From the IMG/VR virus record IMGVR_UViG_3300029989_000103, positions 1-34,903 of that record: a stretch of DNA of 34,903 nucleotides; one strand, given 5' to 3'. Below, in pieces: positions 1 through 34,903 of this stretch. The position numbers and the translations under genes were made by a program. Each line of letters begins with the position of its first letter. The stretch's first letter is position 1. The notes under the pieces were generated by a model, which was not told where the DNA came from, did no database searches, and worked only from the letters and a program-made list of their open reading frames with translations. The DNA is from a virus.

Positions 1-198
1 CTCGATGCACGATCCAGCCTCGATGCACTCTCCAGCCTCGATGCCCCATCCAGCCTCGATGCCCGATCCAGCCTCGATGCCCCATCCAGCCTCGATGCCC
101 CATCCAGCCTCGATGCCCCATCCAGCCTTGATGCCCTCTCCAGCCTCGATGCCCCATCCAGCCTTGATGCCCCATCCAGCCTCGATGCCCGATCCAGC
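1..198. repeat. 18-bp minisatellite, left end (about 11 copies)
   Basis: The unit is ccagcctcgatgccccat with a few variable positions (cgat/cgac region, ttg for tcg, ctc for cat). Copies begin at 14, 32, 50 and every 18 bp to 176, with a degenerate one at 194. Eighteen bases equal six codons, so copy-number change keeps the minus-strand frame. The array continues at the right end of the window. Confidence 0.95.
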
Positions 199-369
199 GG
201 CGGCCCAAATATGACCGGAAGCGTTAATTGAGTCAAATTTTAAGTATCCTAGACCACCATCAATTTCGATGTGGCCTTGAAAGTCGGATACATCGGTTTT
301 GCCGATATATTCCTTCCAATAATAAACGGTCTCTTTAAAGTCTTTGGCGTACAATTTTAATGTTTTCAT
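1..369 (-). CDS. Hexapeptide-repeat beta-solenoid protein, N-terminal part (continues at 34903)
   Basis: ATG at 369..367 overlaps the previous gene's TGA (ATGA) and follows a GGGGAGG ribosome site. About 57 residues of unique sequence (start MKTLKLYAKDFKETVYYW) are followed by eleven tandem hexapeptides of the form I-(E/K)-A-G-(W/E/S)-(G/C). The frame is open to base 1 and joins, in phase, the frame open at 34903 if the terminal CT is counted once; the joined protein would be about 248 residues. Regular Ile and Gly/Ala spacing suggests a beta-solenoid, but the classic left-handed hexapeptide helix has a small residue where this has Trp, so the fold is inference. Function unknown. It sits in the operon driven by the promoter at 724-752. 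The copy number may be wrong if assembly collapsed the repeat. Confidence 0.75.
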   Translation of the reverse strand, partial: MKTLKLYAKDFKETVYYWKEYIGKTDVSDFQGHIEIDGGLGYLKFDSINASGHIWAAAGSGIEAGWGIKAGWGIEAGEGIKAGWGIEAGWGIEAGWGIEAGSGIEAGWGIEAGECIEAGSCIE

Positions 370-8575: not shown

Positions 8576-8770
8576 TTAGGATAAATGTTTAATTTTGAAG
8601 ATTTGTAATATTTCTCTCGGCCAACTAGGATTAAAGTGTTTATCTAGTAGATAAAGTGGCAAATAAATTACTACTAGGCCGATAAAAAACCACTTCTCCA
8701 AAATAAAAACAAACAGTGTCCCCACTCCCAAACTGATAAACATAAAAATTATTCCAATTAGGATGTTCAC
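8576..8770 (-). CDS. Two-span small membrane protein (64 aa, GTG start)
   Basis: GTG 8770 overlaps the stop of the giant gene as GTGA. Spans at about 2-24 (NILIGIIFMFISLGVGTLFV) and 28-44 (FIGLVVIYLPLYLL), then a basic tail with KHFNPSWPREI. Translation is coupled to the giant virion protein, so it may be made late with it. A pinholin or envelope-associated accessory is possible; unassigned. Confidence 0.65.
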   Translation of the reverse strand: MNILIGIIFMFISLGVGTLFVFILEKWFFIGLVVIYLPLYLLDKHFNPSWPREILQIFKIKHLS

Positions 8771-11700
8771 TTTATTCCTAGATAGGTTTTGATTTCAGTG
8801 ACTTCCTTTTCAGTGAATTCTTTAATATTTAACTCTTTTTTGGTGGCCTCGTCCATATTCTGTACTACTTTCCACAAATAGACTTGGCCTTTAAAATCAT
8901 TTGGATCTTTTGATATTGTTCCTCGGCCCCGATTGTACGATGCAATGGCTTTGTTCCAATCTCCATCAAATTTCTTTAATCCATATTCCAATTCTTTTTT
9001 GGCAAGGGGAATAGCAAATTTAGGATCATTGGCTTGTTCCTTGGTTACTTCCGGATGCGCGATGTCATTAATTTGAGCGATACCATTGTCGGTGCTAACA
9101 ATTACTTTAGGTTCAACTATTCTCCACTTTCCATTTACCTTTTCTTTTTTATAGTTAATATTTTGTGCATCTGGTCTATAACCACTTTCAGTCCAAAGCA
9201 AAGAAGAAAGTACAGTTGGTGTTACCTGGCTATCTTTAGTTGTTTCTTTAATTATTGGACCAATGGCCGCATCGGGTTTTCTTTGAATTAAACCTTTATA
9301 AGTTACACCATCTTCAACTGATGGACCCACGCCTTCACCAGCGACCCCGGTTGGAGGGCTTTGGGTTGGTAGGGATGTTGGAGTAGCCATGGCACTCAAA
9401 ACTTTACCTTCGGGCCTGGCATCTAGTTGTTTGGTGTATTCCGGAGTAGTTAAATCAAATCCTAAGATAGATTTTTCATCCGCCACACTTATATTTTGTT
9501 TGTACCATCCCCAATCAGCCTCACGTAGGGCCAACATATTGTTGTAGACCTCTCTAGTTTTATCATTTACCTTTCTATCTTCAACAGCGCCGGAGTATTT
9601 ATTGGAAACTGAATTTATAAAGTTATCACCAAGAGTACCGGGTAAAAATGTTTTTACTTTGTCAAAGAATTTCTTTAATCCAACTGCCCTGGTAACACTT
9701 TCTTTTTTAATATCAGTATTTATTTCGTCCAGACTTTCAGCGGCGTAGGCTTCCTTGACAAATTTAAAGGCAAAAGTTGGTTGTTTTGGTACCATCGTCT
9801 GCTCTTTATTTAGATTGTTTAATTCATTTATTCGGTCGACCACATCGTTTCTAAGGTCGGCGGCTCTACCGGTATCTTTACTCATATCGGCATCGCGGTA
9901 GGCTTTTAAATATTTATCAATTAAAAGTGTTTTTTGGTGCAATCGTTTGATTTTGTCACTCTCGGATTGATCCGGACTGGTGATTTTGTCATTCATGGCT
10001 TTATATGCCTGATCATTTTGAGTTTTCAGATCATAGTAACCTTGAATCGTCCGGCCACTAGTAAAGTATTCGGATCTAGTCACACCGGAGAAGAAATTGT
10101 AAGCCGTACTTTTACCTAAAAGGAATCCGGAGGACCGGCCAAAGATACCAGTAATAAGATAATCCATTTTTACTGGTGATAATCCAGTTAATTTTCCAAG
10201 TTCCTTTGACATTAAAGATGTTGATTCGGTGGCGCGTAGACCGGTAGGTAGTGATTGAAGATAAGTATTTTCCAGTGGCAATACTTTCGGATAATCTTTT
10301 AAATTTAAAGCCGTCATCATTGGCACCTTGATTAATGGTGGGATCCAGGCGAGTAATGCCCGGACTGGATCGGTAATATCAAATTGTTGAGGTAGTATTT
10401 GAGCCGTACCGGAAATAAAATCACCGGTGGTGTAATTAGCGTCCAACATTTGATTCATCAAAGCCATTGAGACTAGACCACCGATCAATCCATATTGTTG
10501 AACCTTTATTTTTATCAAAGTCTTACCATCTGGGTTAGGGAGCCATATATAGTTGACCAACTCATTTGCTTCAATATCTCTCAATAAACGCTTCTGATCA
10601 TCGGTGGAATTTGACATCATCAAGGCAAAAGCACCAATTGAAGCGGCGGTAATGGCCCCAAATACAAATCCAAGGCGCGCCCGGCTCTTTTTATCTCTTC
10701 CGGCTACTCGAAGCAACTGATCCATTACCTGAATGGTGGGATTGAAGAATGGGAGAGATTTAATAGCTACTCTTCCAAATTGGCCACCCCACTTACCGAC
10801 ATGGTGGAATGGTGCGGTAACTCTTCCGGCTTCTTCTAATGAAACTATTTGAGGTTTACCGCTTTTTCTTGATTTAATGTACTCCGAAGCCCTGGTACTA
10901 AGTTCTGAATAAGTTGAAGGTATAGATAAAATATCTAACCCTGTATTGATAGCATCAACCACTTTTAATAAACCTTTTCTCTCATTTCTTATTTTGGTTG
11001 ATAATTCAGTGGGCGACATATCTTGCCAATGGGCGAATGTTTGTCTTTGACCACCTAAAACTAAGTATTCAAGAAAATATTGTGCTTCCGGACTGTCCTT
11101 ACTCAATAACGCTTTAGAAAGGGTGTTAATGGCTGTAGCCAGTGGAATATTGTTATTGGTGGTGTTGGCGGCCAAAGTAATTTGATCCCCCATCCAGTTA
11201 GTTAAAGCAAAAGCCGGGAATAAACCGGTAGTACCTTTGGTGAAGGATCGGGAAACTGCCAATAAAACATTTTCAAAGGTTCCATAATTACCAGGTGTAA
11301 TTGTTTCATCTAAAACGGTTTTAACATAGTTATCCCAAAGCACCGGTAATCTTTTACCATTCTTTCTACCCATTATTATATTGGTATCTTTTTCTTGTGG
11401 ATACCGGAATGATCCGTTGGCTTGTCGGGACCTAATTAATTGTTGTGGTTGTGCTAGATCCGGGAATTTTGGTGCCAAGTTTTCGTTTACTTTGTTGTAA
11501 ACAACCTGTCTATAGGCTTTTCTTATTATTTCTGCCTCGTTTTTAATACCAGAATAGACCGGATTTAATATGGTTCTCTTTGATCCTTTCCTTCGAAGTA
11601 ATGATGATACTGTTGATTTACCCACCTTCACCGGGCCGGATGATCCTTGTTCCTCTCCCACTAATTGATCAAAGAATTGACGTTTGCGTGAAGCATATCC

Positions 11701-14700
11701 CTGTTTTTCGGTATATTCGATATATTGTTTTTTACTCAACATCCCCACTTCGTCCTCACTTAATAGTTTTAGACTCTCATTAGTCAATTTATCAAACATT
11801 AATTCGTCTTTTGAGAATCTATCCTTATTTTTTAAATAAGCATCGCTGGCTTCTTTTTTGGTGATACCATCTCGGACCAACATAGCATTTTGTTCATCAT
11901 AAAGTTTTTGAGCGGCGTTGGTTTCTTCTACTAGGCTGATACCATCCTCGGAAATTAGTTTGGCGGCTTCTTCTAGACCCCCGGCTTCCTCTATTTGCAT
12001 CATTAATTCATCCAGGGCCACTTTATACTCATTTAACAATTTGTAGTCAAAATAAGAGGCTCTAGCCACTAAGTAATAACCAAAAGAATCGGTGGTTTTG
12101 TCTTTTCCAAGGTTATCAATCAATGTTTTCCAGTTGTAATCAAGGGTTTTAGTAAATCCTTTACCGGAGACATAACGATAATATCCAGTCTTTCCAATTA
12201 AGTTGGTGGCCACTATTCCGCTAATCTGTTGGAATTGGCGAATATAAAGCGATGGATCTTCACCGGTCATATTTATACCAGCAATTGTTGACAACTTTTC
12301 AAACGGAAATACCATATCGGCCAATTGTGTCCGGACCTTATCGCCTAGCTTCATGAAACTCTTTTTGTCATACTTTACATTATCTGAAGTCACCCTAGCC
12401 CCGATTTTATCGAGTGGATCTAATCCCTGGTAATCTTCAATAAATTTGTTGACATCTTTTAATATTTGACCAATTACTGGTTCGTAAAACTTCCCATTTT
12501 CGGTCAAAAACTCAGTGACCAGGTTTGGATATTCCTGGGTAATGGTAGTGGGTTGCTCGGCATACTTTTGAATTAAGGTAGCCAATCCCTCTACTGTTCT
12601 TTTCTTCACTGAATCAGTCTTTTTACCACCGGGATAATAATTAGTATAAAGTTTGGTTATTTCCTTTCGTACCGCTTTGGTAGCCGGATCATATATTGGT
12701 TTCCCGTTCTCGGTAGTATCAACCACTTCGCGGATCCTGTCTGATATTTTAAATCGAGCATCTAAAAAGTGGGATATTTCGTGGGTAGCTACTGCTAGAT
12801 CATTCATACCGTTTACCCGAATGTTTTGAGTATCAGTGTAATAAACTCCGGCGGCTCTCTTGGGTAAATAACCTTCTCCAATCAGTTTGGCGTATTTATC
12901 AATTAAAACTTCTACTGCTTTATATAATTTATAGTTGGTGGCTTCTGTTTTGGTTGGTCTTTGTTCAAATTTACCGATAGTTTCAGCACCGGCCGAAGCA
13001 TTGGCACCACTTGGGACACTAGGTGACTTCTTTTTAACTGTTTTAGCTTTTGTCACTTCTGGTACCACCGTTTTTACTGGTACTTCTACTCTATCCGAAA
13101 AATGGACCGGTTTTAAATCACCGGGTTCGTTGTAATCAAATCTAACCTTGTTTCCATCGACTGCTTTAATAGCATCTTTTAAATATTCGTAATTAAATCC
13201 AATTTCTGGTAAACCTAAACGATCACCACCATCGGTTCTCACCGGCATTAATAAAGTACCAGGTACAATTCCTTCCGGGATGTTTACTTCTTCGCGACTT
13301 ACCTTTAAATCAACCGATTTGGTAATTGTTTGACCATTCATATCTTTGTATTCGGCAACTAGTTTTACTCCACCTTCGGGATCTATCGATAATTTAGTAA
13401 TTTTGGCATTTTGTTTGGCGTATGGTTCGATTTGCTTAACTGCATCCAAAAATTCTGTCTTATCAATCACTAATTCGTTTTTAAATCCGGAACTGTAAAC
13501 CCTGGGGACATCTGGGTATTGACCATCAATTTTGCCAACTTGTATAGATCCATTAGGGCCGATAAATTCAACATAAGTCTTACTATCTTTGACTTCAATC
13601 TTTCCTTCACCCAAAAGGTTAATAAATTTATCGAGATTATTTCCCATAATGATAAATTCAGTATCTTTCGAGTTGATTTTGGCCCCTGTGGTCTGATAAG
13701 TGGCTCTGAATCCATCAGTAGACATGATTTCAAGTTGTCCATTATTCACCGTCATTCTAATGCCTTGGAGTACTGGTCTGTTATCATCAATTCCGATAGC
13801 CGTTTGAGCTTTACTTGCCGCTTCAATTAAATTTCCACTTAAAATGTCAAAAGCCGGGATGGTTTCTTCTTGCCACTTTACCGGGAAGTCGGTAGTATCA
13901 GCACCTTTGATTGCATCTTTTCCGACCATTGTGTAATAACCATCCGGTTTATCGGTATTTAATGATATTGTGTGTTCGAGGTCACTAAAATTCATTTTGC
14001 CATCTTTAACCTGAAAACCTTTGAGTATTGAAAATGTTTTACTAGACTTTTTATTTAAAGCACTTAAAACCTTTTCGGGTTGAATCTGCTTGGTTGGTTT
14101 AATATTTTTTACCTGTTCTTGGGCGTTAAATATTTCCTCTGATGTTATTTCTTGGACCGTATAGCCGTCTTTTTGTTCTACTCCTATTTTCTTTTGCGCG
14201 TTATCTACTGATCGACTAATCATTCTTAATTCATCTGGCGATAACTTTCTACCTTCAATGGTTCCAGTTCTCAAATATAATTTGCCTTCGGAAATACTAT
14301 TTTTTAGTTCCTGAATACCTTGTGGATCGTTAATTTTTAATTTATTTATTATTTCATCAAATGTTTTGGAGTTGTTTACTTCCGATTTATATTTATAGAC
14401 TGGTACACCTTCTTGTGTTCCCACCTTTACAAATTTAGAATCAATTTTTGGTGTACTAACCTTGGTATCAATCCATCTTTGAGTATCAGCGATGTATTCG
14501 TCATACCATTTTTTATCTTTAACTCCATTGGCTGATTGTTCCTCCGTAATAGTAGCCGGGGCTTTGTCTCTTAATACTTTGGCCGATTGAATATCGAGGT
14601 TGGCTTGTTTTACTTCATCCGTTTGTTTTTGGACAACTGTTTTTTCTTTAACTGGTTTTTTCACCGGCACATCTGCTCCATTTGAAGCATCCATTTGTTT

Positions 14701-16584
14701 TCCGATAGTTTCTGCCACCTTTTGATCTGCCAATACAATTGCTTCATCCAATGCGCGTGCTAGATCCGGACTTAATTTAGCCCGATCCATCATTTTTGAA
14801 GTAAACATATCATTACCGGCCAATTTTTCTCTAACAAGAATATCAACCAACTCTTTTTTACTGCCAATTATTTCATCTCTGGTTAAAACTGGCTCTTTTT
14901 TAGTAAATGTTTTTTTAGGGGGGGTAACTGGTGCCTCCGGTGGTGCTACTGGCGTTTCTGGTGTCACTGGTGACGTTTCTATACCTGATCCAATGGCCTT
15001 TGGCGGTCCCATTTGAACCTCGACATTAAAGTTTTTGCTACCAATCTTAAAACTAAGAGGTTTTACCCTCTCGGTAGAAATTCCGGCGGCATCTTTTAAA
15101 TTAATGTTTTCAATCTGTAGTTTTTGCAATTCTTTGGCGTAGTATTGGACCTCTGAATCAGCACCAACCATTTTTCCCACTTCATCCGGATTTGCTCCTG
15201 GGTTTTTGGCGGTGACTTCACCGGTAATTTTCTTTACAGTGGTATCAAATGTTTCCTGGGCTGTTTTTATGGCCGGTTCGTTTGTTTTTAGGGCCGCCAA
15301 TGCTCTTGGTTTAATTCCTAGTACATCTTTTATTTTATTCCAGTACGGTTTATCTTTAACTTCCAATAATTGTTTCGGAGTAATAGTTACACCTTCTTTT
15401 ACGGCTCCCTTTTGTACACCTTTTTTATCTCCAATTTGTGAAAAGAAATCTTTTTGCTCGGCAGTGGTTAATTTACCAGTGGCTCTAATATCTCGGACCT
15501 GTTCGGGAGTAAGGACCACCGATTCAATGTTATTTTTGACAAAAATATCTTTGGTTAGTCTTTCTTTGATCGCCGGGACTTTTTGAAATGCCTTGACGCC
15601 CAAATAAAATTCAGCAATTAATTCAACACCGGCGATTGTTCTCAATAATGGATCCGGTAGTGTTTCTGGTAATAAATCAGTGAATGTTTTTGATCCGGGT
15701 TTAATTTTATTTACCAATGCTTCTTTTCCCTTCTGTACGGCGCTAAAAGCTCCTACTGATGCGATTGTTACCAGTGGGGCTTCAATCAATCCACCTATTA
15801 AAGCCAGTGACATGACGGCGGTGGTTAATTCTTCGGCGTTTGGTTGATTTCTTATACCTAATTCTTTAGTAATTTGATCTCTGGTTTTATCAGTTGGCAT
15901 TGGTACTTGATCTCTCGATACATTTAATTTTTTAGCAATGGCACCTTGCAAATTATAATCAACTGCGCTTTGAGCCGGATCCGGCTGACCAATAAAAGCC
16001 GTTTGTAATTTACTCCAAAAAGTTTGTTTACTTGGAGTAGTAATAACTGATTTATCGGCATTTATTTTAGCAATAGTATTTTGTGCCTCTACTGGTTTTA
16101 CTTCACCGTTGGTAAGCCAATCGTTATTATTTTTTATCTGTTCTGGTGACGGTGTTATTGGGGTAGTAATTGTTTTAGTGTCTTTGACCACCGACAATCC
16201 CATTTTAGGTTGAGGTTTAATCAAAGTGGCCGATTGATCAGCAACCGGAGAAACAATATTGTCGATCTTTACGTTTGGATTAAAATTATCTGGTATTTTT
16301 ACTTCCGGACCATTGGCTTTAATATCTATCAATGCTTGGGTTTTTGGATCGACATTTTTAAAAGCGGTAGTAATTAATGCTCCAAGTTTATTAAATATAT
16401 TTGGTTGAGGTGGGGTTACTGCCGGTTGGGCCACTGGTACTGGTTTAATTGCTCCGGCTTTAATAGCGGCGGCAAAGTTTTGGCTAGCACTACCGGTGGT
16501 AGGTATCGATGCACCAACACTACCCGTAGCATTTGCTCCGGTCGGTTTTCCATATTTAGCCGCGAAGGTTGATGATGCAGACAT
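8767..16584 (-). CDS. Giant polyvalent virion/ejection protein (2605 aa): beta-clamp-like, zincin, LPD38-like and lytic transglycosylase modules
   Basis: Domains seen in order: a low-complexity N-terminus; a hydrophobic segment near 252-285 (MSLALIGGLIEAPLVTIASV); helical and Pro-rich linkers (near 545); a three-part DNA polymerase III beta-clamp-like region about 850-1165 (SILKGFQVKDGKMNFSDLEH; TDGFRA at 956-961; KIDGQYPDVPRVY near 1018; YLKDAIKAVDGNKVRF near 1132); a zinc peptidase site HEISH at 1268-1272; an LPD38-like region about 1750-1960 (TKGTTGLFPAFALTNWMGD; KSLPFFNPTIQVMDQLL) followed by a membrane segment near 1970-1990; and a C-terminal SLT-type transglycosylase with Glu2466 in WTESGY, GIAQIN and ASYNRG. 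Such multi-domain proteins are packaged in podovirus heads and ejected: the transglycosylase opens the wall and other modules act in the host. The clamp could seize host polymerase. Starts two bases after the previous stop. Confidence 0.85.
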   Translation of the reverse strand: MSASSTFAAKYGKPTGANATGSVGASIPTTGSASQNFAAAIKAGAIKPVPVAQPAVTPPQPNIFNKLGALITTAFKNVDPKTQALIDIKANGPEVKIPDNFNPNVKIDNIVSPVADQSATLIKPQPKMGLSVVKDTKTITTPITPSPEQIKNNNDWLTNGEVKPVEAQNTIAKINADKSVITTPSKQTFWSKLQTAFIGQPDPAQSAVDYNLQGAIAKKLNVSRDQVPMPTDKTRDQITKELGIRNQPNAEELTTAVMSLALIGGLIEAPLVTIASVGAFSAVQKGKEALVNKIKPGSKTFTDLLPETLPDPLLRTIAGVELIAEFYLGVKAFQKVPAIKERLTKDIFVKNNIESVVLTPEQVRDIRATGKLTTAEQKDFFSQIGDKKGVQKGAVKEGVTITPKQLLEVKDKPYWNKIKDVLGIKPRALAALKTNEPAIKTAQETFDTTVKKITGEVTAKNPGANPDEVGKMVGADSEVQYYAKELQKLQIENINLKDAAGISTERVKPLSFKIGSKNFNVEVQMGPPKAIGSGIETSPVTPETPVAPPEAPVTPPKKTFTKKEPVLTRDEIIGSKKELVDILVREKLAGNDMFTSKMMDRAKLSPDLARALDEAIVLADQKVAETIGKQMDASNGADVPVKKPVKEKTVVQKQTDEVKQANLDIQSAKVLRDKAPATITEEQSANGVKDKKWYDEYIADTQRWIDTKVSTPKIDSKFVKVGTQEGVPVYKYKSEVNNSKTFDEIINKLKINDPQGIQELKNSISEGKLYLRTGTIEGRKLSPDELRMISRSVDNAQKKIGVEQKDGYTVQEITSEEIFNAQEQVKNIKPTKQIQPEKVLSALNKKSSKTFSILKGFQVKDGKMNFSDLEHTISLNTDKPDGYYTMVGKDAIKGADTTDFPVKWQEETIPAFDILSGNLIEAASKAQTAIGIDDNRPVLQGIRMTVNNGQLEIMSTDGFRATYQTTGAKINSKDTEFIIMGNNLDKFINLLGEGKIEVKDSKTYVEFIGPNGSIQVGKIDGQYPDVPRVYSSGFKNELVIDKTEFLDAVKQIEPYAKQNAKITKLSIDPEGGVKLVAEYKDMNGQTITKSVDLKVSREEVNIPEGIVPGTLLMPVRTDGGDRLGLPEIGFNYEYLKDAIKAVDGNKVRFDYNEPGDLKPVHFSDRVEVPVKTVVPEVTKAKTVKKKSPSVPSGANASAGAETIGKFEQRPTKTEATNYKLYKAVEVLIDKYAKLIGEGYLPKRAAGVYYTDTQNIRVNGMNDLAVATHEISHFLDARFKISDRIREVVDTTENGKPIYDPATKAVRKEITKLYTNYYPGGKKTDSVKKRTVEGLATLIQKYAEQPTTITQEYPNLVTEFLTENGKFYEPVIGQILKDVNKFIEDYQGLDPLDKIGARVTSDNVKYDKKSFMKLGDKVRTQLADMVFPFEKLSTIAGINMTGEDPSLYIRQFQQISGIVATNLIGKTGYYRYVSGKGFTKTLDYNWKTLIDNLGKDKTTDSFGYYLVARASYFDYKLLNEYKVALDELMMQIEEAGGLEEAAKLISEDGISLVEETNAAQKLYDEQNAMLVRDGITKKEASDAYLKNKDRFSKDELMFDKLTNESLKLLSEDEVGMLSKKQYIEYTEKQGYASRKRQFFDQLVGEEQGSSGPVKVGKSTVSSLLRRKGSKRTILNPVYSGIKNEAEIIRKAYRQVVYNKVNENLAPKFPDLAQPQQLIRSRQANGSFRYPQEKDTNIIMGRKNGKRLPVLWDNYVKTVLDETITPGNYGTFENVLLAVSRSFTKGTTGLFPAFALTNWMGDQITLAANTTNNNIPLATAINTLSKALLSKDSPEAQYFLEYLVLGGQRQTFAHWQDMSPTELSTKIRNERKGLLKVVDAINTGLDILSIPSTYSELSTRASEYIKSRKSGKPQIVSLEEAGRVTAPFHHVGKWGGQFGRVAIKSLPFFNPTIQVMDQLLRVAGRDKKSRARLGFVFGAITAASIGAFALMMSNSTDDQKRLLRDIEANELVNYIWLPNPDGKTLIKIKVQQYGLIGGLVSMALMNQMLDANYTTGDFISGTAQILPQQFDITDPVRALLAWIPPLIKVPMMTALNLKDYPKVLPLENTYLQSLPTGLRATESTSLMSKELGKLTGLSPVKMDYLITGIFGRSSGFLLGKSTAYNFFSGVTRSEYFTSGRTIQGYYDLKTQNDQAYKAMNDKITSPDQSESDKIKRLHQKTLLIDKYLKAYRDADMSKDTGRAADLRNDVVDRINELNNLNKEQTMVPKQPTFAFKFVKEAYAAESLDEINTDIKKESVTRAVGLKKFFDKVKTFLPGTLGDNFINSVSNKYSGAVEDRKVNDKTREVYNNMLALREADWGWYKQNISVADEKSILGFDLTTPEYTKQLDARPEGKVLSAMATPTSLPTQSPPTGVAGEGVGPSVEDGVTYKGLIQRKPDAAIGPIIKETTKDSQVTPTVLSSLLWTESGYRPDAQNINYKKEKVNGKWRIVEPKVIVSTDNGIAQINDIAHPEVTKEQANDPKFAIPLAKKELEYGLKKFDGDWNKAIASYNRGRGTISKDPNDFKGQVYLWKVVQNMDEATKKELNIKEFTEKEVTEIKTYLGIK

Positions 16585-16586
16585 AG

Positions 16587-17492
16587 TTAAAGACCAAATA
16601 ATTTATTGCGATAATCTTTGTTCATTTGGTAGCCACTACCTTGACCATAATCTTTACGGCCAGGATCAGTCAAACCACCAAATTGTTTTTCAAAATCATC
16701 CGGGGTACCCAAGCCATCATCCACCCATGCTTTTTTAGCCGCATTCCAAACTTCCGGTGGTACGTGTCCGTATGAATTAGCTTGTGAATATAAGCTTTGG
16801 ACTAATATTGTTTTATTTTCTTTTGATATTTCAGTATCACTCTTTGTACTTGGTTTATCAGCTTTGCCTATCTTTCCAAGGTTTGTTTTACTAATTACTG
16901 CCCCTGTCTTTTTGTCTTGGACAATACTAATTACGTTTCCGGCGTTATCAGTCTCGGAAATTATTTGAGTATCGGGTTTGGATAACTCTGCCGCCGCGGT
17001 AGCTTTTTCTGTAAGTGTTTTTAATTGAGTTTGATCAACTAATAGACTGGCATTAAGATTAGTGTTTATTTTTTGGATCCGACCAACTCTGTTTGATTCT
17101 GCTAAAAATGGATTCTCGTTTACCATCGCGATTGCTTCATTGGCCTTGGTTTGTTTATCCAAAATTCGAGCATTGGTATCGTCAATTTGTTTTTGTAAGT
17201 CACTAACCGGGGTAATTGCACCACCAGCGCCGGGTGCTGATCCACCTGGAGCAATAGCACCACCATTCATCCCTAAATATTTTTCATTCGTTCCTGGGGC
17301 CAATCCTTGTGCCACATCGCTCTGCGCGACCACTTCCCTACTAACCATCGAGTTAGGATCACCGGGTATAGATTGATTTTTTTCTCCTAATTTTCCATCC
17401 AAATATCTTTGACCATCATACCAACCACCATTAGAAGGAGTAATTGTTTGACCGTTTTCTAGTTTTAATTGTCCATTAATTAATTGTGCCAT
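16587..17492 (-). CDS. Coiled-coil virion-associated protein (301 aa)
   Basis: The N-terminus (AQLINGQLKLENGQTITPS) is beta-like, then comes a Gly/Pro/Ala linker near 75-90, a coiled coil about 92-160 (SDLQKQIDDTNARILDKQTK), a beta part with AGNVISIVQDKKTGAVISK, and a C-terminal third with PPEVWNAAKKAWVDDG. It sits between the adaptor-like gene and the giant polyvalent gene, the place where podoviruses encode ejection proteins, and its start overlaps the adaptor gene's last base region. It is a good candidate for an ejected or internal head protein, but no named family was recognised. Confidence 0.7.
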   Translation of the reverse strand: MAQLINGQLKLENGQTITPSNGGWYDGQRYLDGKLGEKNQSIPGDPNSMVSREVVAQSDVAQGLAPGTNEKYLGMNGGAIAPGGSAPGAGGAITPVSDLQKQIDDTNARILDKQTKANEAIAMVNENPFLAESNRVGRIQKINTNLNASLLVDQTQLKTLTEKATAAAELSKPDTQIISETDNAGNVISIVQDKKTGAVISKTNLGKIGKADKPSTKSDTEISKENKTILVQSLYSQANSYGHVPPEVWNAAKKAWVDDGLGTPDDFEKQFGGLTDPGRKDYGQGSGYQMNKDYRNKLFGL

Positions 17493-18190
17493 TAGTTTTG
17501 TCCTCCAAAATTACCGGTTCTAGTTGGACCATTGTTTCCAAAGAAATCCGGAACTATAAACATTGGTTTTCTAATTCTTTGTTTTAATTGAGTTCTATTG
17601 GCTATTTTGGTGTAGCACTTGGCAATAATTATCTTGGCTTCGTTAATTGCATCATTGGCTTTATCAACATCAATATTTTTAATTAAATAGGCATAGGCTC
17701 GAAGTAAAATAGCTTCGTTGGTAGCGCTTGACCATCCCGAAAACATACTCTCACTCACATCCGATCCCATTTCCGAAGCTTGAATTAGTCCCCAAAAAAT
17801 TAAATTATTAGTTCCATCCATATTAGATTTTGGAGTAAAAAATATTTGTCTACCGTATTCACTAAAAAATTTACTGTTTGATCCAGGATTCTTTTCAGTA
17901 AAGTTTAAAAAGTCGGTAAAATCTTTCTTTTCAAATTCTGAATCACCATCTAAACTCATTCTAAAAATAGATTCACTTTGGCAATTAGAAGGGTAGTCGT
18001 AATAAGGCTGATTTGCTACCGAACTGGTAACAAAGCCCTTTCTAATACTCGGCCATGGTTGTTCATCACCGGCCCATAAGTTAGCCCGGCTAATAGCTTT
18101 CTGTATTCTATCCGGTGTGAAATACGTCGAGGTAGAAACGGCTAGAAGCATTGGTGTTAATTCGTTTTGTAAATCTAATCTCGTTTCCAT
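17492..18190 (-). CDS. Head-tail adaptor/connector-like protein (232 aa)
   Basis: The N-terminal helices METRLDLQNELTPMLLAVST and DRIQKAISRANLWAGDEQPW, a beta middle (NQPYYDYPSNCQSESIFRMS) and a helical part (TNEAILLRAYAYLIKNIDVD) have the layout of phage adaptor proteins that dock under the portal (P22 gp4 / gp6-like helical bundles). The Gly/Asn-rich tail ends TRTGNFGGQN. Similar proteins are found in many podovirus-like genomes beside fibre genes. ATG 18190 has an A-rich leader after the TGATATATTC promoter at 18212. Assignment rests on layout and context. Confidence 0.55.
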   Translation of the reverse strand: METRLDLQNELTPMLLAVSTSTYFTPDRIQKAISRANLWAGDEQPWPSIRKGFVTSSVANQPYYDYPSNCQSESIFRMSLDGDSEFEKKDFTDFLNFTEKNPGSNSKFFSEYGRQIFFTPKSNMDGTNNLIFWGLIQASEMGSDVSESMFSGWSSATNEAILLRAYAYLIKNIDVDKANDAINEAKIIIAKCYTKIANRTQLKQRIRKPMFIVPDFFGNNGPTRTGNFGGQN

Positions 18191-28898: not shown

Positions 28899-30689
28899 TT
28901 ATGCTGTGGCTACTGGTGGAGTCGCTGTAGGCATGATTGCCGGAGGATTACCACCGCCATTGGGATTAATATTTAACATTGATGATTGCATTAATGAGGC
29001 TTTGGCGGCCATTTCTATATTCTTCTTCTCTTCATCCAACACCTGTTTCTTTTCGTCCGGTGTCAAATTAACAATATCGAGTAGTTTCTTTTTATAGATT
29101 TCATCAAAAGTATTATTACCGGGGAATTTACTTTTTACTCCATCAAGATTTTGGACCTGATCAAGATTTTGTTCGGCTTTGTCTTTTTTAGATATTACCT
29201 CGCAACTGTAACCGGCTTTACTACGCCAATCTGCCGGTCCTATCTCACGCGTAAAGACATTTCCTCGATAACCCGACTTAAACAACTTCACTGCTTCTAT
29301 TTCATCACCCATGGCCTCTAACAACTTAATGTATTTGGTTCCAAGGTCAAGCCAATTCTGTCGATAGAATAAAGCCATTGATTGAATTACTTTAGTAGCA
29401 TTGGCATCGAGTAGAGTAACTTCTCCAAGTGTAATTTGTTTTGGTTGGCTCACTCCCTGAACAATAGCAGTAGCGTTTGATGCTTTTTCAGCAATTGTAG
29501 TGACAAAGTTAAGGTTTTCAATCTCATTGGCTAATTGTGGTATTTCAATATGTTGGATAATCGCTTTGGGATCACCGGGGATTGCATACCAACCAAACGG
29601 TTCCGGTTCAAAAGTTTCTGGTACAAAGCCAACACTACCATCTTCGGACATTGCGGCGGTAGCATCATAGAAATTCATACCCATATAAGCCAAGGTTCGA
29701 TTCTCTACCATTTGGCTAAACCAGGAATTAGCAATTTTATTAGGTACTCTTACAGAATCAGCGGGGGCATCAGTCCAAAAGTCACTAGCTTCCAAATCTT
29801 CGGCCCATGATCCATAAGGAAAATGATTACGCCAAAAGTGATCCGGAGTAATACCAATCACCGTTTCTAAAAATTCAGCATAAAGTATTTTGTTTAACCC
29901 ATTAAAGGCGGCAGATACAGTAAATATAATCTCTTCATCATCAACATCTTTATTGTAAACCTTGATAAATCCCTCTTGCATTTCCACCAGTGTTTGCCCG
30001 ACCATTGGCAAATCAACATCATCCACACCCAAATCGCGCATTGCATTGTTTTTTGTTCTTAGTTTCTCTTCGTTCTCCGATCCCAACTGCATACCCTCGT
30101 CACTTTGAAAAAACTTTTCAATATCGGAAACTACAGTCTGATCATACATTGTATTCAGCTTCAAATCGGCTAAAGTTGAAAATATATTACCCTGAATTAA
30201 GTACCTGGCCGAATCAATATCGGTAGGATCAATTAACCGATCAACTCTCATGTCCTGGGGATGTACAATATCCAACTTAACCTTGCCTTTCTTTACGTTC
30301 CACTTCTCAAAAGTCCTTCCAAATATTAATGTTTGTTTTTTATCTGCCTTGTCTTTTAACTCTAAATGATTATCTTTAACCACAACATCGGACCAATATT
30401 GGTTATAAAACAATTCTTTTTGTTTATCATTATCAAGGTTGGTAAACTCCAACTCCACAAAATCATCAATCCGGGACAACAATGTTTTCATTGTCCCCTT
30501 CATTATGGGTAAATTCACTGATTGTCGCTGTGTTAAACGGTTTACAATGACCTTATCGCGGTACAAAGTGTAATTTTCCCTCCAATCCTCATGGCGGCGT
30601 TCTTGGAACTCATAGCCCTCATCATTGGCGGTTCTGATGCGATATTCTAGTTCGTCTTTGGTGATTATTGTTTCACTAATATTATTCAT
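28899..30689 (-). CDS. Portal protein (596 aa)
   Basis: Long protein directly after the terminases; N-terminal region with ISETIITKDELEYRIRTAND, then KVIVNRLTQRQSVNLPIMKG and the portal-like KLDIVHPQDMRVDRLIDPTD in a beta wing. Middle blocks such as PFGWYAIPGDPKAIIQHIEI and EIENLNFVTTIAEKASNATA (clip and stem helices), and QNWLDLGTKYIKLLEAMGDE, fit P22-type portals. The C-terminus is Pro/Asn-rich (NPNGGGNPPAIMPTATPP). It forms the dodecameric DNA channel at one capsid vertex. ATG 30689 follows a TGATATATTC promoter by about 27 nt. Confidence 0.85.
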   Translation of the reverse strand: MNNISETIITKDELEYRIRTANDEGYEFQERRHEDWRENYTLYRDKVIVNRLTQRQSVNLPIMKGTMKTLLSRIDDFVELEFTNLDNDKQKELFYNQYWSDVVVKDNHLELKDKADKKQTLIFGRTFEKWNVKKGKVKLDIVHPQDMRVDRLIDPTDIDSARYLIQGNIFSTLADLKLNTMYDQTVVSDIEKFFQSDEGMQLGSENEEKLRTKNNAMRDLGVDDVDLPMVGQTLVEMQEGFIKVYNKDVDDEEIIFTVSAAFNGLNKILYAEFLETVIGITPDHFWRNHFPYGSWAEDLEASDFWTDAPADSVRVPNKIANSWFSQMVENRTLAYMGMNFYDATAAMSEDGSVGFVPETFEPEPFGWYAIPGDPKAIIQHIEIPQLANEIENLNFVTTIAEKASNATAIVQGVSQPKQITLGEVTLLDANATKVIQSMALFYRQNWLDLGTKYIKLLEAMGDEIEAVKLFKSGYRGNVFTREIGPADWRSKAGYSCEVISKKDKAEQNLDQVQNLDGVKSKFPGNNTFDEIYKKKLLDIVNLTPDEKKQVLDEEKKNIEMAAKASLMQSSMLNINPNGGGNPPAIMPTATPPVATA

Positions 30690-34523: not shown

Positions 34524-34903
34524 TTATTTAATAACAGCGGTATGTTCCACTCCATCGATAGTAACCGTAATTTCCTTACCGGATAAACTAATTTCTTTTT
34601 TCTCTTCTTCCTTCTCCACCGGCAATCCGGTTTCTTTCAATATTCCGTATTCCAAAACGGCTCCTTTTTGTGGATCAAACTTACCGCAGGTTATGGTTTT
34701 TTCTTCATTATTGATATTTCTCCAAATACAGATACCGGCGAATATTTTGGTTGAAAAAGATAGTACCAATTTACAGGTAATTGATAATACAGCCTCGATG
34801 CCCCATCCAGCCTCGATGCCCTCTCCAGCCTCGATGCCCTCTCCAGCCTTGATGCCCCATCCAGCCTTGATGCCCCATCCAGCCTCGATGCCCCATCCAG
34901 CCT
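34524..34903 (-). CDS. Hexapeptide-repeat beta-solenoid protein, C-terminal part (continues from position 1)
   Basis: The frame is open from the right edge. About six IEAGWG-type hexapeptides lead into AVLSITCKLVLSFSTKIFAG, strand-rich residues that look like the capping turns of a solenoid, then ICIWRNINNEEKTITCGKFD, a Glu/Lys segment VEKEEEKKEISLSG and a last hairpin KEITVTIDGVEHTAVIK. A TTG at 34769 is the first start inside the unique part but the upstream repeat frame is uninterrupted and joins the gene starting at 369, so the TTG is not the real start. The final 30 residues could form an independent beta module. Confidence 0.7.
   Translation of the reverse strand, partial: AGWGIEAGWGIKAGWGIKAGEGIEAGEGIEAGWGIEAVLSITCKLVLSFSTKIFAGICIWRNINNEEKTITCGKFDPQKGAVLEYGILKETGLPVEKEEEKKEISLSGKEITVTIDGVEHTAVIK
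34790..34903. repeat. 18-bp minisatellite, right end (about 6-7 copies)
   Basis: Same ccagcctcgatgccccat unit as at 1-198, in the same phase. With the two-base CT overlap the combined array has 17-18 copies and 18-bp periodicity is kept across the junction. Confidence 0.95.

What the first reader, a model, noticed from the sequence alone, without database searches (positions are those of the whole stretch)
8767..16584. Four-activity polyvalent protein: clamp, HEISH zincin, LPD38-like core and C-terminal transglycosylase
A zincin-type HEISH at 1268-1272 directly follows the clamp-like region, an LPD38-like region with membrane segment follows, and a complete SLT transglycosylase (WTESGY, GIAQIN, ASYNRG) ends the protein. 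The peptidase may release the clamp from the wall-digesting end after ejection. Polyvalent proteins are known, but this set and order are not familiar to me.
Basis: partly seen in the sequence, partly recalled or inferred. Interest (0 to 1): 0.8.

Follow-up and report, generated by a model that had tools for sequence, protein, structure and literature searches.

The report
Virion polyvalent protein carrying clamp-like domain
A small phage makes one giant protein, probably injected into the host with its DNA, that joins a wall-cutting enzyme, a self-processing-type peptidase and, unexpectedly, a shrunken copy of the bacterial DNA-replication clamp, so the phage may touch the host's replication machinery the moment it enters.

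Summary
Window 8767-16584 (minus strand, 2605 aa) encodes a beta-clamp-like domain (832-1185), an HExxH zincin (about 1206-1400; HEISH 1268-1272, third ligand E1332), an LPD38 core (1460-2330) and a C-terminal SLT domain (2440-2605).

Zincin plus LPD38 is the known backbone of phage-type polyvalent proteins. It is shared in order with Vibrio/Shewanella podophages and about ten closer metagenomic phages, which carry other cargo. HExxH is retained in every complete relative of this clade. New here is the clamp cargo, found in 3 of 60 polyvalent proteins screened: the window, a close sister, and a distant third (L160; about 50% identical in the core, 26% in the clamp). The Iyer et al. 2017 survey does not mention a clamp.

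The clamp keeps most of the partner-binding pocket but has a 70-aa domain 1 (114 aa or more in typical phage clamps) and lacks the canonical dimer-contact and DNA-channel residues. A delivered, possibly monomeric clamp mimic therefore fits better than a working sliding ring. The C-terminal SLT fusion is seen only in window and sister. Packaging, cleavage and clamp function are inferred. New variant of a known kind.

The parts
8767..16584 (-). Whole polyvalent ORF, 2605 aa
   Evidence: sister protein of 2590 aa in L002
14515..16584 (-). N-terminal region aa 1-690, no known domain; hydrophobic segment aa 257-275; Pro-rich linker aa 527-556
14092..14514 (-). Fast-evolving spacer aa 691-831
   Evidence: dN/dS 0.46 for aa 690-835 against 0.165 for the whole protein
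13030..14091 (-). Beta-clamp-like domain aa 832-1185
   Evidence: Pfam, PHROG and NCBIfam matches; model Z 26
13882..14091 (-). Shortened clamp domain 1, aa 832-901
   Evidence: 70 aa against 84 (Tunturi_4) and 114 or more (others)
13705..13719 (-). TDGFR, aa 956-960, counterpart of the E. coli TDGHR pocket motif
13237..13254 (-). LLMPVR, aa 1111-1116, internal copy of the clamp's usual C-terminal MPMR motif
12970..13062 (-). Linker aa 1175-1205 between clamp and zincin, candidate cleavage region (inference)
   Evidence: sequence; dN/dS 0.143
12385..12969 (-). Zincin-like metallopeptidase aa 1206-1400
   Evidence: dN/dS 0.029
12769..12783 (-). HEISH, aa 1268-1272
   Evidence: invariant H, E, H in 22 of 22 homologues
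12589..12591 (-). E1332, predicted third zinc ligand
   Evidence: invariant in 22 of 22 homologues
9595..12207 (-). Conserved LPD38-containing core aa 1460-2330
   Evidence: alignments
10108..10521 (-). Pfam LPD38 match, aa 2022-2159
10618..10674 (-). Hydrophobic segment aa 1971-1989
   Evidence: Kyte-Doolittle mean 1.97
8770..9267 (-). SLT lytic transglycosylase domain aa 2440-2605, predicted catalytic E2466
   Evidence: PF01464 E 2.5e-11; motif positions
16587..17492 (-). Neighbouring gene, 301 aa, candidate ejection protein by position only
   Evidence: no PHROG match
17492..18190 (-). Neighbouring gene, 232 aa, candidate ejection protein by position only
   Evidence: no PHROG match

Best explanation
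It is a phage-type polyvalent (DarB/gp16-like) protein carried in the virion and ejected with the genome. Steps: (1) it is packaged in the head as the last member of the ejection-protein cluster (inferred from gene position and family); (2) on infection the C-terminal transglycosylase opens the peptidoglycan (inferred from the domain; precedent T7 gp16); (3) the zincin-LPD38 core is the conserved delivery and processing backbone, and the zincin may cut the chain once and free the cargo (inferred); (4) the cargo, in the slot where relatives carry 2H phosphoesterase, methylase, SNF2 or InPase domains, is here a beta-clamp-derived domain. Because it keeps much of the clamp's partner-binding pocket but lacks the canonical ring-closing and DNA-channel residues, it most likely acts as a monomeric clamp mimic that binds host clamp partners (clamp-loader delta, Pol III alpha or others), to disturb host replication or steer these proteins at the start of infection. 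Shown: domain identities, architecture, conservation, residue losses. Inferred: packaging, cleavage, target, effect.
For: Domains. Collinear zincin-LPD38 homology to Vibrio/Shewanella polyvalent proteins. Zincin residues invariant; the top 31 structural matches all come from zincin entries (lethal factor, PPEP-1/2, an MtfA-like hydrolase, a putative metallopeptidase; Z up to 7.1) and the first unrelated row scores 4.2. Purifying selection on every domain (dN/dS zincin 0.03, core 0.05-0.09, clamp 0.11-0.24, SLT 0.16; spacer 0.46). Clamp fold Z 26. Clamp fusion recurs in L160. Pocket residues kept (R936, L939, T956, G958, R960, P1024, R1028, V1029, N1131, Y1134) while E. coli I78/R103/F106 fall in the deletion, I272-L273 reads P-Y and R24/R80/R168/R197/K198 are not kept. 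No phage polymerase, clamp loader or second clamp found. Late-gene position. Cargo swapping in relatives.
Against: No virion proteomics. The pocket is weaker in L160 (G174S, H175Y, R176A, R246V) and the C-terminal MPMR tail is absent in all three fused clamps (an internal MPxR may replace it in two), so pocket binding is not certain even within the family. The short domain 1 also occurs in a stand-alone phage clamp (Tunturi_4) annotated as a processivity factor, so such clamps may still form rings by another contact. Residue mapping rests on alignments at about 20-27% identity.
Confidence: 0.45

Rival explanations
1. The embedded domain is a working processivity clamp, delivered so that phage replication can start at once with the host polymerase, by analogy with the virion RNA polymerase of N4 for transcription.
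For: Clamp-like fold over 305 residues; most pocket residues kept; purifying selection; no phage polymerase or second clamp found.
Against: Domain 1 is cut to 70 aa, canonical dimer-contact and DNA-channel residues are lost, no clamp loader was found, and a ring would have to close while joined to over a thousand further residues unless the zincin frees it.
Confidence: 0.2
2. The clamp fold is kept only as a structural or DNA-contacting module of the ejection machine (spacer, packing or DNA guide) and has no replication partner.
For: Pocket degrades in L160 while the fold stays; the clamp evolves faster than the zincin-LPD38 core; DNA-channel basic residues are not conserved.
Against: Ten pocket residues are kept in the window; relatives do without a clamp and fill the slot with enzymes, which points to effector cargo.
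Confidence: 0.2
3. The zincin does not process the protein itself but cleaves a host protein, or is needed only for encapsidation; the polyprotein stays intact.
For: N4 virion RNAP is packaged unprocessed although its MPTase region is needed for encapsidation, and Iyer et al. list host targets as an option (PMC5512222).
Against: None found here; all active-site residues are invariant, which fits either target.
Confidence: 0.45

Closest known systems
Phage-type polyvalent proteins with zincin MPTase and LPD38 (Iyer et al. 2017, PMC5512222); nearest named examples found: Vibrio phage 1.183.O gp15, Shewanella phage X14 'DNA methylase subunit', Vibrio phage VvAW1
   Same: Zincin followed by LPD38 core in the same order, gene beside virion genes, giant size, exchangeable N-terminal cargo
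   Different: Those carry methylase or SNF2 cargo and no clamp, and have no SLT homologous to the window's
Bcep22-like giant DarB-like proteins (JC1 gp69, CSP3 orf43; PMC9144972, PMC10269572)
   Same: Lytic transglycosylase and LPD38 in one giant protein next to structural genes
   Different: Transglycosylase at the N-terminus, SNF2 and methylase cargo, LPD3, no clamp listed
T7 gp16 internal virion protein
   Same: Large last ejection protein with a transglycosylase that helps breach the wall (PMC8954989)
   Different: Transglycosylase is N-terminal; no zincin, LPD38 or clamp reported in the passages read; 1318 aa
DNA polymerase III beta sliding clamp (DnaN) and phage processivity factors, phrog_947
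   Same: Sequence and predicted fold; most pocket residues
   Different: Domain 1 is 70 aa, dimer-contact and DNA-channel residues are lost, C-terminal MPMR tail absent with MPVR internal, embedded in a 2605-aa protein
Stand-alone clamp of Tunturiibacter phage Tunturi_4 (XOB77407.1)
   Same: Short domain 1 and internal MPxR motif
   Different: Separate 361-aa protein, about 22% identical to the window clamp

Membership tests
Phage-type polyvalent protein (Iyer et al. 2017) | Several domains of unrelated activity in one polypeptide | tested here: met
   clamp, zincin, LPD38, SLT
Phage-type polyvalent protein (Iyer et al. 2017) | LPD38, reported only from phage-type polyvalent proteins | tested here: met
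   PF18857 32.8 bits against a cut-off of 27; statement
Phage-type polyvalent protein (Iyer et al. 2017) | Encoded among virion (late) genes | tested here: met
   terminase, major head and tail proteins on the same strand
Phage-type polyvalent protein (Iyer et al. 2017) | Packaged in the virion and delivered to the host | not testable with these tools
   needs virion proteomics
Zincin-like metallopeptidase (polyvalent MPTase) | HExxH plus downstream Glu, conserved in homologues | tested here: met
   invariant in 22 of 22
Zincin-like metallopeptidase (polyvalent MPTase) | Zincin fold | tested here: inconclusive
   all of the top 31 rows come from zincin entries, but Z is at most 7.1 and model confidence is moderate; Foldseek E not below 0.2
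Zincin-like metallopeptidase (polyvalent MPTase) | Zinc binding and proteolysis | not testable with these tools
   needs purified protein
Beta sliding clamp (DnaN) | Clamp sequence and fold | tested here: met
Beta sliding clamp (DnaN) | Three full-size domains | tested here: not met
   domain 1 is 70 aa against 114 or more in typical phage clamps
Beta sliding clamp (DnaN) | Dimer-contact residues (E. coli I78, F106, I272, L273) | tested here: not met
   gap, gap, P1054, Y1055 (residues listed in PMC11139829)
Beta sliding clamp (DnaN) | Partner-binding pocket | tested here: inconclusive
   most of subsite I plus N320 and Y323 kept; H175F, L177A and tail M362-R365 not kept, MPxR internal instead
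Beta sliding clamp (DnaN) | Ring on DNA, processivity | not testable with these tools
   needs biochemistry
SLT lytic transglycosylase | Pfam SLT above cut-off with catalytic Glu and the GxxQIN and AxYNxG motifs | tested here: met
   PF01464 43.6 bits against 21.3; TESGY, GIAQIN, ASYNRG

The most novel reading that the evidence does not exclude
The virion injects a monomeric beta-clamp mimic that is freed from its carrier by the built-in zincin and captures host clamp-binding proteins before any phage gene is expressed: a virion-borne attack on, or recruitment of, the host replisome.
Probability: 0.3. Interest if true: 0.8.

Novelty: new variant of a known kind. Interest (0 to 1): 0.55.

Why it matters
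Polyvalent proteins are known to carry nucleases, methylases, helicases, an RNA polymerase and nucleotide enzymes, but the 2017 survey does not mention a sliding clamp or processivity factor. A clamp-derived cargo would put the host replisome among the targets reached at DNA entry. Because the domain keeps pocket residues and drops canonical ring-forming ones, it offers a small, expressible test of whether phages use clamp mimics. The junction with a highly conserved zincin also makes the open question of what these zincins cleave testable in a compact protein.

Tried and rejected
Chimeric assembly: rejected; a diverged sister contig has the same fusion. Pfam, NCBIfam and PADLOC on the zincin fragment: no meaningful hit; some homologues give only weak metallopeptidase hits (M90, Mx1, MPTase-PolyVal). 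Zincin profile against PDB sequences: best hits are PPDK outside the motif, judged chance; one weak hit to a snake venom metalloproteinase. Foldseek on the zincin model alone gave no E below 0.2; the second look was needed. First genome-contig scan found nothing; the second found one distant zincin-LPD38 relative, L133. LPD38 in 398 genomes of the phylum of L133: 8 with matches; no clamp in the seven ORFs fetched or in L133. Single origin of the clamp fusion: not resolved, one or two gains. Homology of the window's SLT to a separate SLT gene in L160: not detected. Host: not identified; no portal relative and TerL relatives too varied. Literature searches for a clamp in polyvalent or ejection proteins: none found, in an open-licence library only.
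Full report
What is there. The ORF at 8767-16584 on the minus strand encodes 2605 aa. Pfam finds, above curated cut-offs, DNA_pol3_beta_2 (918-1025), DNA_pol3_beta_3 (1127-1174), LPD38 (2022-2159) and SLT (2445-2560); PHROG 947, 'DNA polymerase processivity factor', matches at E 2e-28. HEISH lies at 1268-1272 and is the only HExxH in the protein. With just nine His in 2605 aa, 8 of 5000 shuffles contain any HExxH.

Same fusion in a sister genome. L002 encodes a 2590-aa protein with the same domains in the same order; its contig (35,052 bp) is a different permutation of a similar genome. Region by region, dN/dS is 0.029 for the zincin, 0.05-0.09 for the LPD38 core, 0.11-0.24 for the three clamp domains, 0.16 for SLT and 0.46 for the spacer before the clamp. 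All four parts are under selection and the fusion is not an assembly artefact.

The zincin. The window's own fragment has no metallopeptidase hit in Pfam. tblastn found Vibrio and Shewanella podophage proteins weakly in the zincin region (E 2) and, for the Vibrio ones at the collinear place, in the LPD38 region (E 0.002-0.005). Full alignment shows continuous homology. Scans of viral contigs gave closer relatives at 31-47% identity in the core. In 22 aligned homologues H1268, E1269, H1272, D1275 and E1332 are invariant; across 20 proteins of the wider set HExxH is always present and an EG[FLY]A motif is found in 19. An Asp three residues after HExxH is a feature Iyer et al. describe for one phage-type MPTase clade (PMC5512222). 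The AlphaFold model (mean pLDDT 63, domain core 82-92) puts HEISH in one helix and E1332 in a later one. In the VIA-align list the top 31 rows all come from zincin entries, mostly lethal factor, then PPEP-1/2, an MtfA-like hydrolase and a putative metallopeptidase (Z 7.1 to 4.4); the first unrelated row has 4.2. A few of these rows align to the N-terminal, non-catalytic domain of lethal factor, itself zincin-like (own knowledge). Iyer et al. used the same lethal-factor similarity to name these domains.

The LPD38 core and its cargo slot. Relatives with the zincin-LPD38 core carry different N-terminal cargo: a 2H phosphoesterase (L103, L104), methylase (1.183.O, FGH) or SNF2 plus Eco57I-type methylase (VvAW1); the more distant CF418P1 has InPase and LPD3. 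So zincin plus LPD38 is the backbone and the N-terminal part is exchangeable.

The clamp is the unusual cargo. In 79 other viral-contig loci holding clamp relatives, the clamp lies in an ORF of at most 567 aa, never in a giant protein. Among 60 polyvalent ORFs screened with a clamp HMM built without the window, sister and Tunturi_4, only three score: window, sister and L160 (E 6e-39, 7.5e-36, 6.7e-25). L160 (IMGVR_UViG_3300035698_003939) has the clamp directly before an HEITH zincin and LPD38, with 26% identity in the clamp, 55% in the zincin and 50% in the core. The tree does not decide between one and two origins of the fusion. The last collection scan with a clamp alignment found no fourth member.

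What kind of clamp. The model (pLDDT 84, pTM 0.81) matches beta clamps at Z 26 over 305 residues. Domain 1 has only 70 aa, against 84 in the stand-alone clamp of Tunturi_4 and 114 or more in the other phage clamps measured. Mapped on E. coli DnaN (functional residues from PMC11139829; the DNA-channel list is from my own knowledge), the window keeps R152, L155, T172, G174, R176, P242, R246, V247, N320 and Y323 of the partner pocket, changes H175 to F and L177 to A, and lacks the C-terminal MPMR tail; an MPVR motif sits internally at 1113-1116, as MPMR does in Tunturi_4. I78, R103 and F106 of the dimer contact fall in the deletion, I272-L273 reads P-Y, and R24, R80, R168, R197 and K198 are not conserved. 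A ring that slides on DNA is therefore doubtful and a partner-binding mimic more likely. L160 has lost more of the pocket (G174S, H175Y, R176A, R246V), which keeps this open. The alignment is at low identity and no multimer prediction was possible.

The transglycosylase. The SLT domain at the C-terminus is found only in window and sister among 46 polyvalent proteins screened, and in none of the 14 added. Some relatives have a separate SLT gene (G002 and G003; G408). Transglycosylase plus LPD38 in one giant protein is known from Bcep22-like phages (PMC9144972; PMC10269572), so this part is a variation on a theme.

Genome setting. Upstream on the same strand lie terminase subunits, major head protein and tail proteins; downstream are an endolysin and small membrane-type proteins. 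The polyvalent gene follows two smaller genes (232 and 301 aa), the position of the last ejection gene. No phage polymerase, clamp loader or second clamp was found, though several ORFs have no annotation.

Mechanism. Best supported: virion-delivered polyvalent protein; wall opening by SLT; zincin-LPD38 as backbone; clamp-derived domain as cargo that binds host clamp partners. Packaging, delivery, cleavage and target are inferences from family precedent (P1 DarB is carried in the head, PMC9024508; P1 DdrB is processed and N4 vRNAP is not).

Novelty. The architecture belongs to a known kind (phage polyvalent proteins) with a cargo the founding survey does not mention ('clamp' and 'processivity' do not occur in its main text) and that my literature searches did not find elsewhere (open-licence papers only). 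I rate it a new variant of a known kind, interest 0.55.

Noticed in passing
window 1-214 and about 34780-34903: Both contig ends lie in the same short tandem repeat (CCAGCCTCGATGCCCCAT-like), and the sister contig L002 runs across this junction, so the window is probably a nearly complete, circularly permuted genome of about 35 kb cut in the repeat.
   Followed up: partly
L103 6003-11966 and L104 6376-12120 (about aa 610-717): In these relatives the cargo slot holds a 2H phosphoesterase (2_5_RNA_ligase2) that also matches the Pfam anti-CBASS Acb1 model at E 2e-5, just under its cut-off: a possible virion-delivered anti-CBASS enzyme.
   Followed up: no
L002 and L160, just before the clamp: A module with 'KPRY...SDVDKALYI' precedes the clamp in the sister and in L160 (47% identical over 83 aa) but is absent from the window.
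   Followed up: partly
L160 11658-12119: A 153-aa ORF right after the polyvalent gene carries IGLSQIN and LYNRNG motifs like a transglycosylase but is not found by Pfam SLT.
   Followed up: partly
window 15595-16584: The first 330 codons of the polyvalent gene have half the synonymous divergence from the sister (dS 0.26 against 0.54 overall), suggesting recent recombination there.
   Followed up: no
L004 1110-9164 (Achromobacter phage CF418P1): A clear polyvalent protein (InPase, LPD3, HEVVGH, LPD38) is annotated 'putative portal'.
   Followed up: yes
L005 2959-4044 (Tunturiibacter phage Tunturi_4): Stand-alone phage clamp with short domain 1 and internal MPMR: a possible unrecognised clamp subfamily.
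   Followed up: partly
window 28899-30689: The 596-aa protein in the portal position has no PHROG match and no relative among 50,697 phage records.
   Followed up: no
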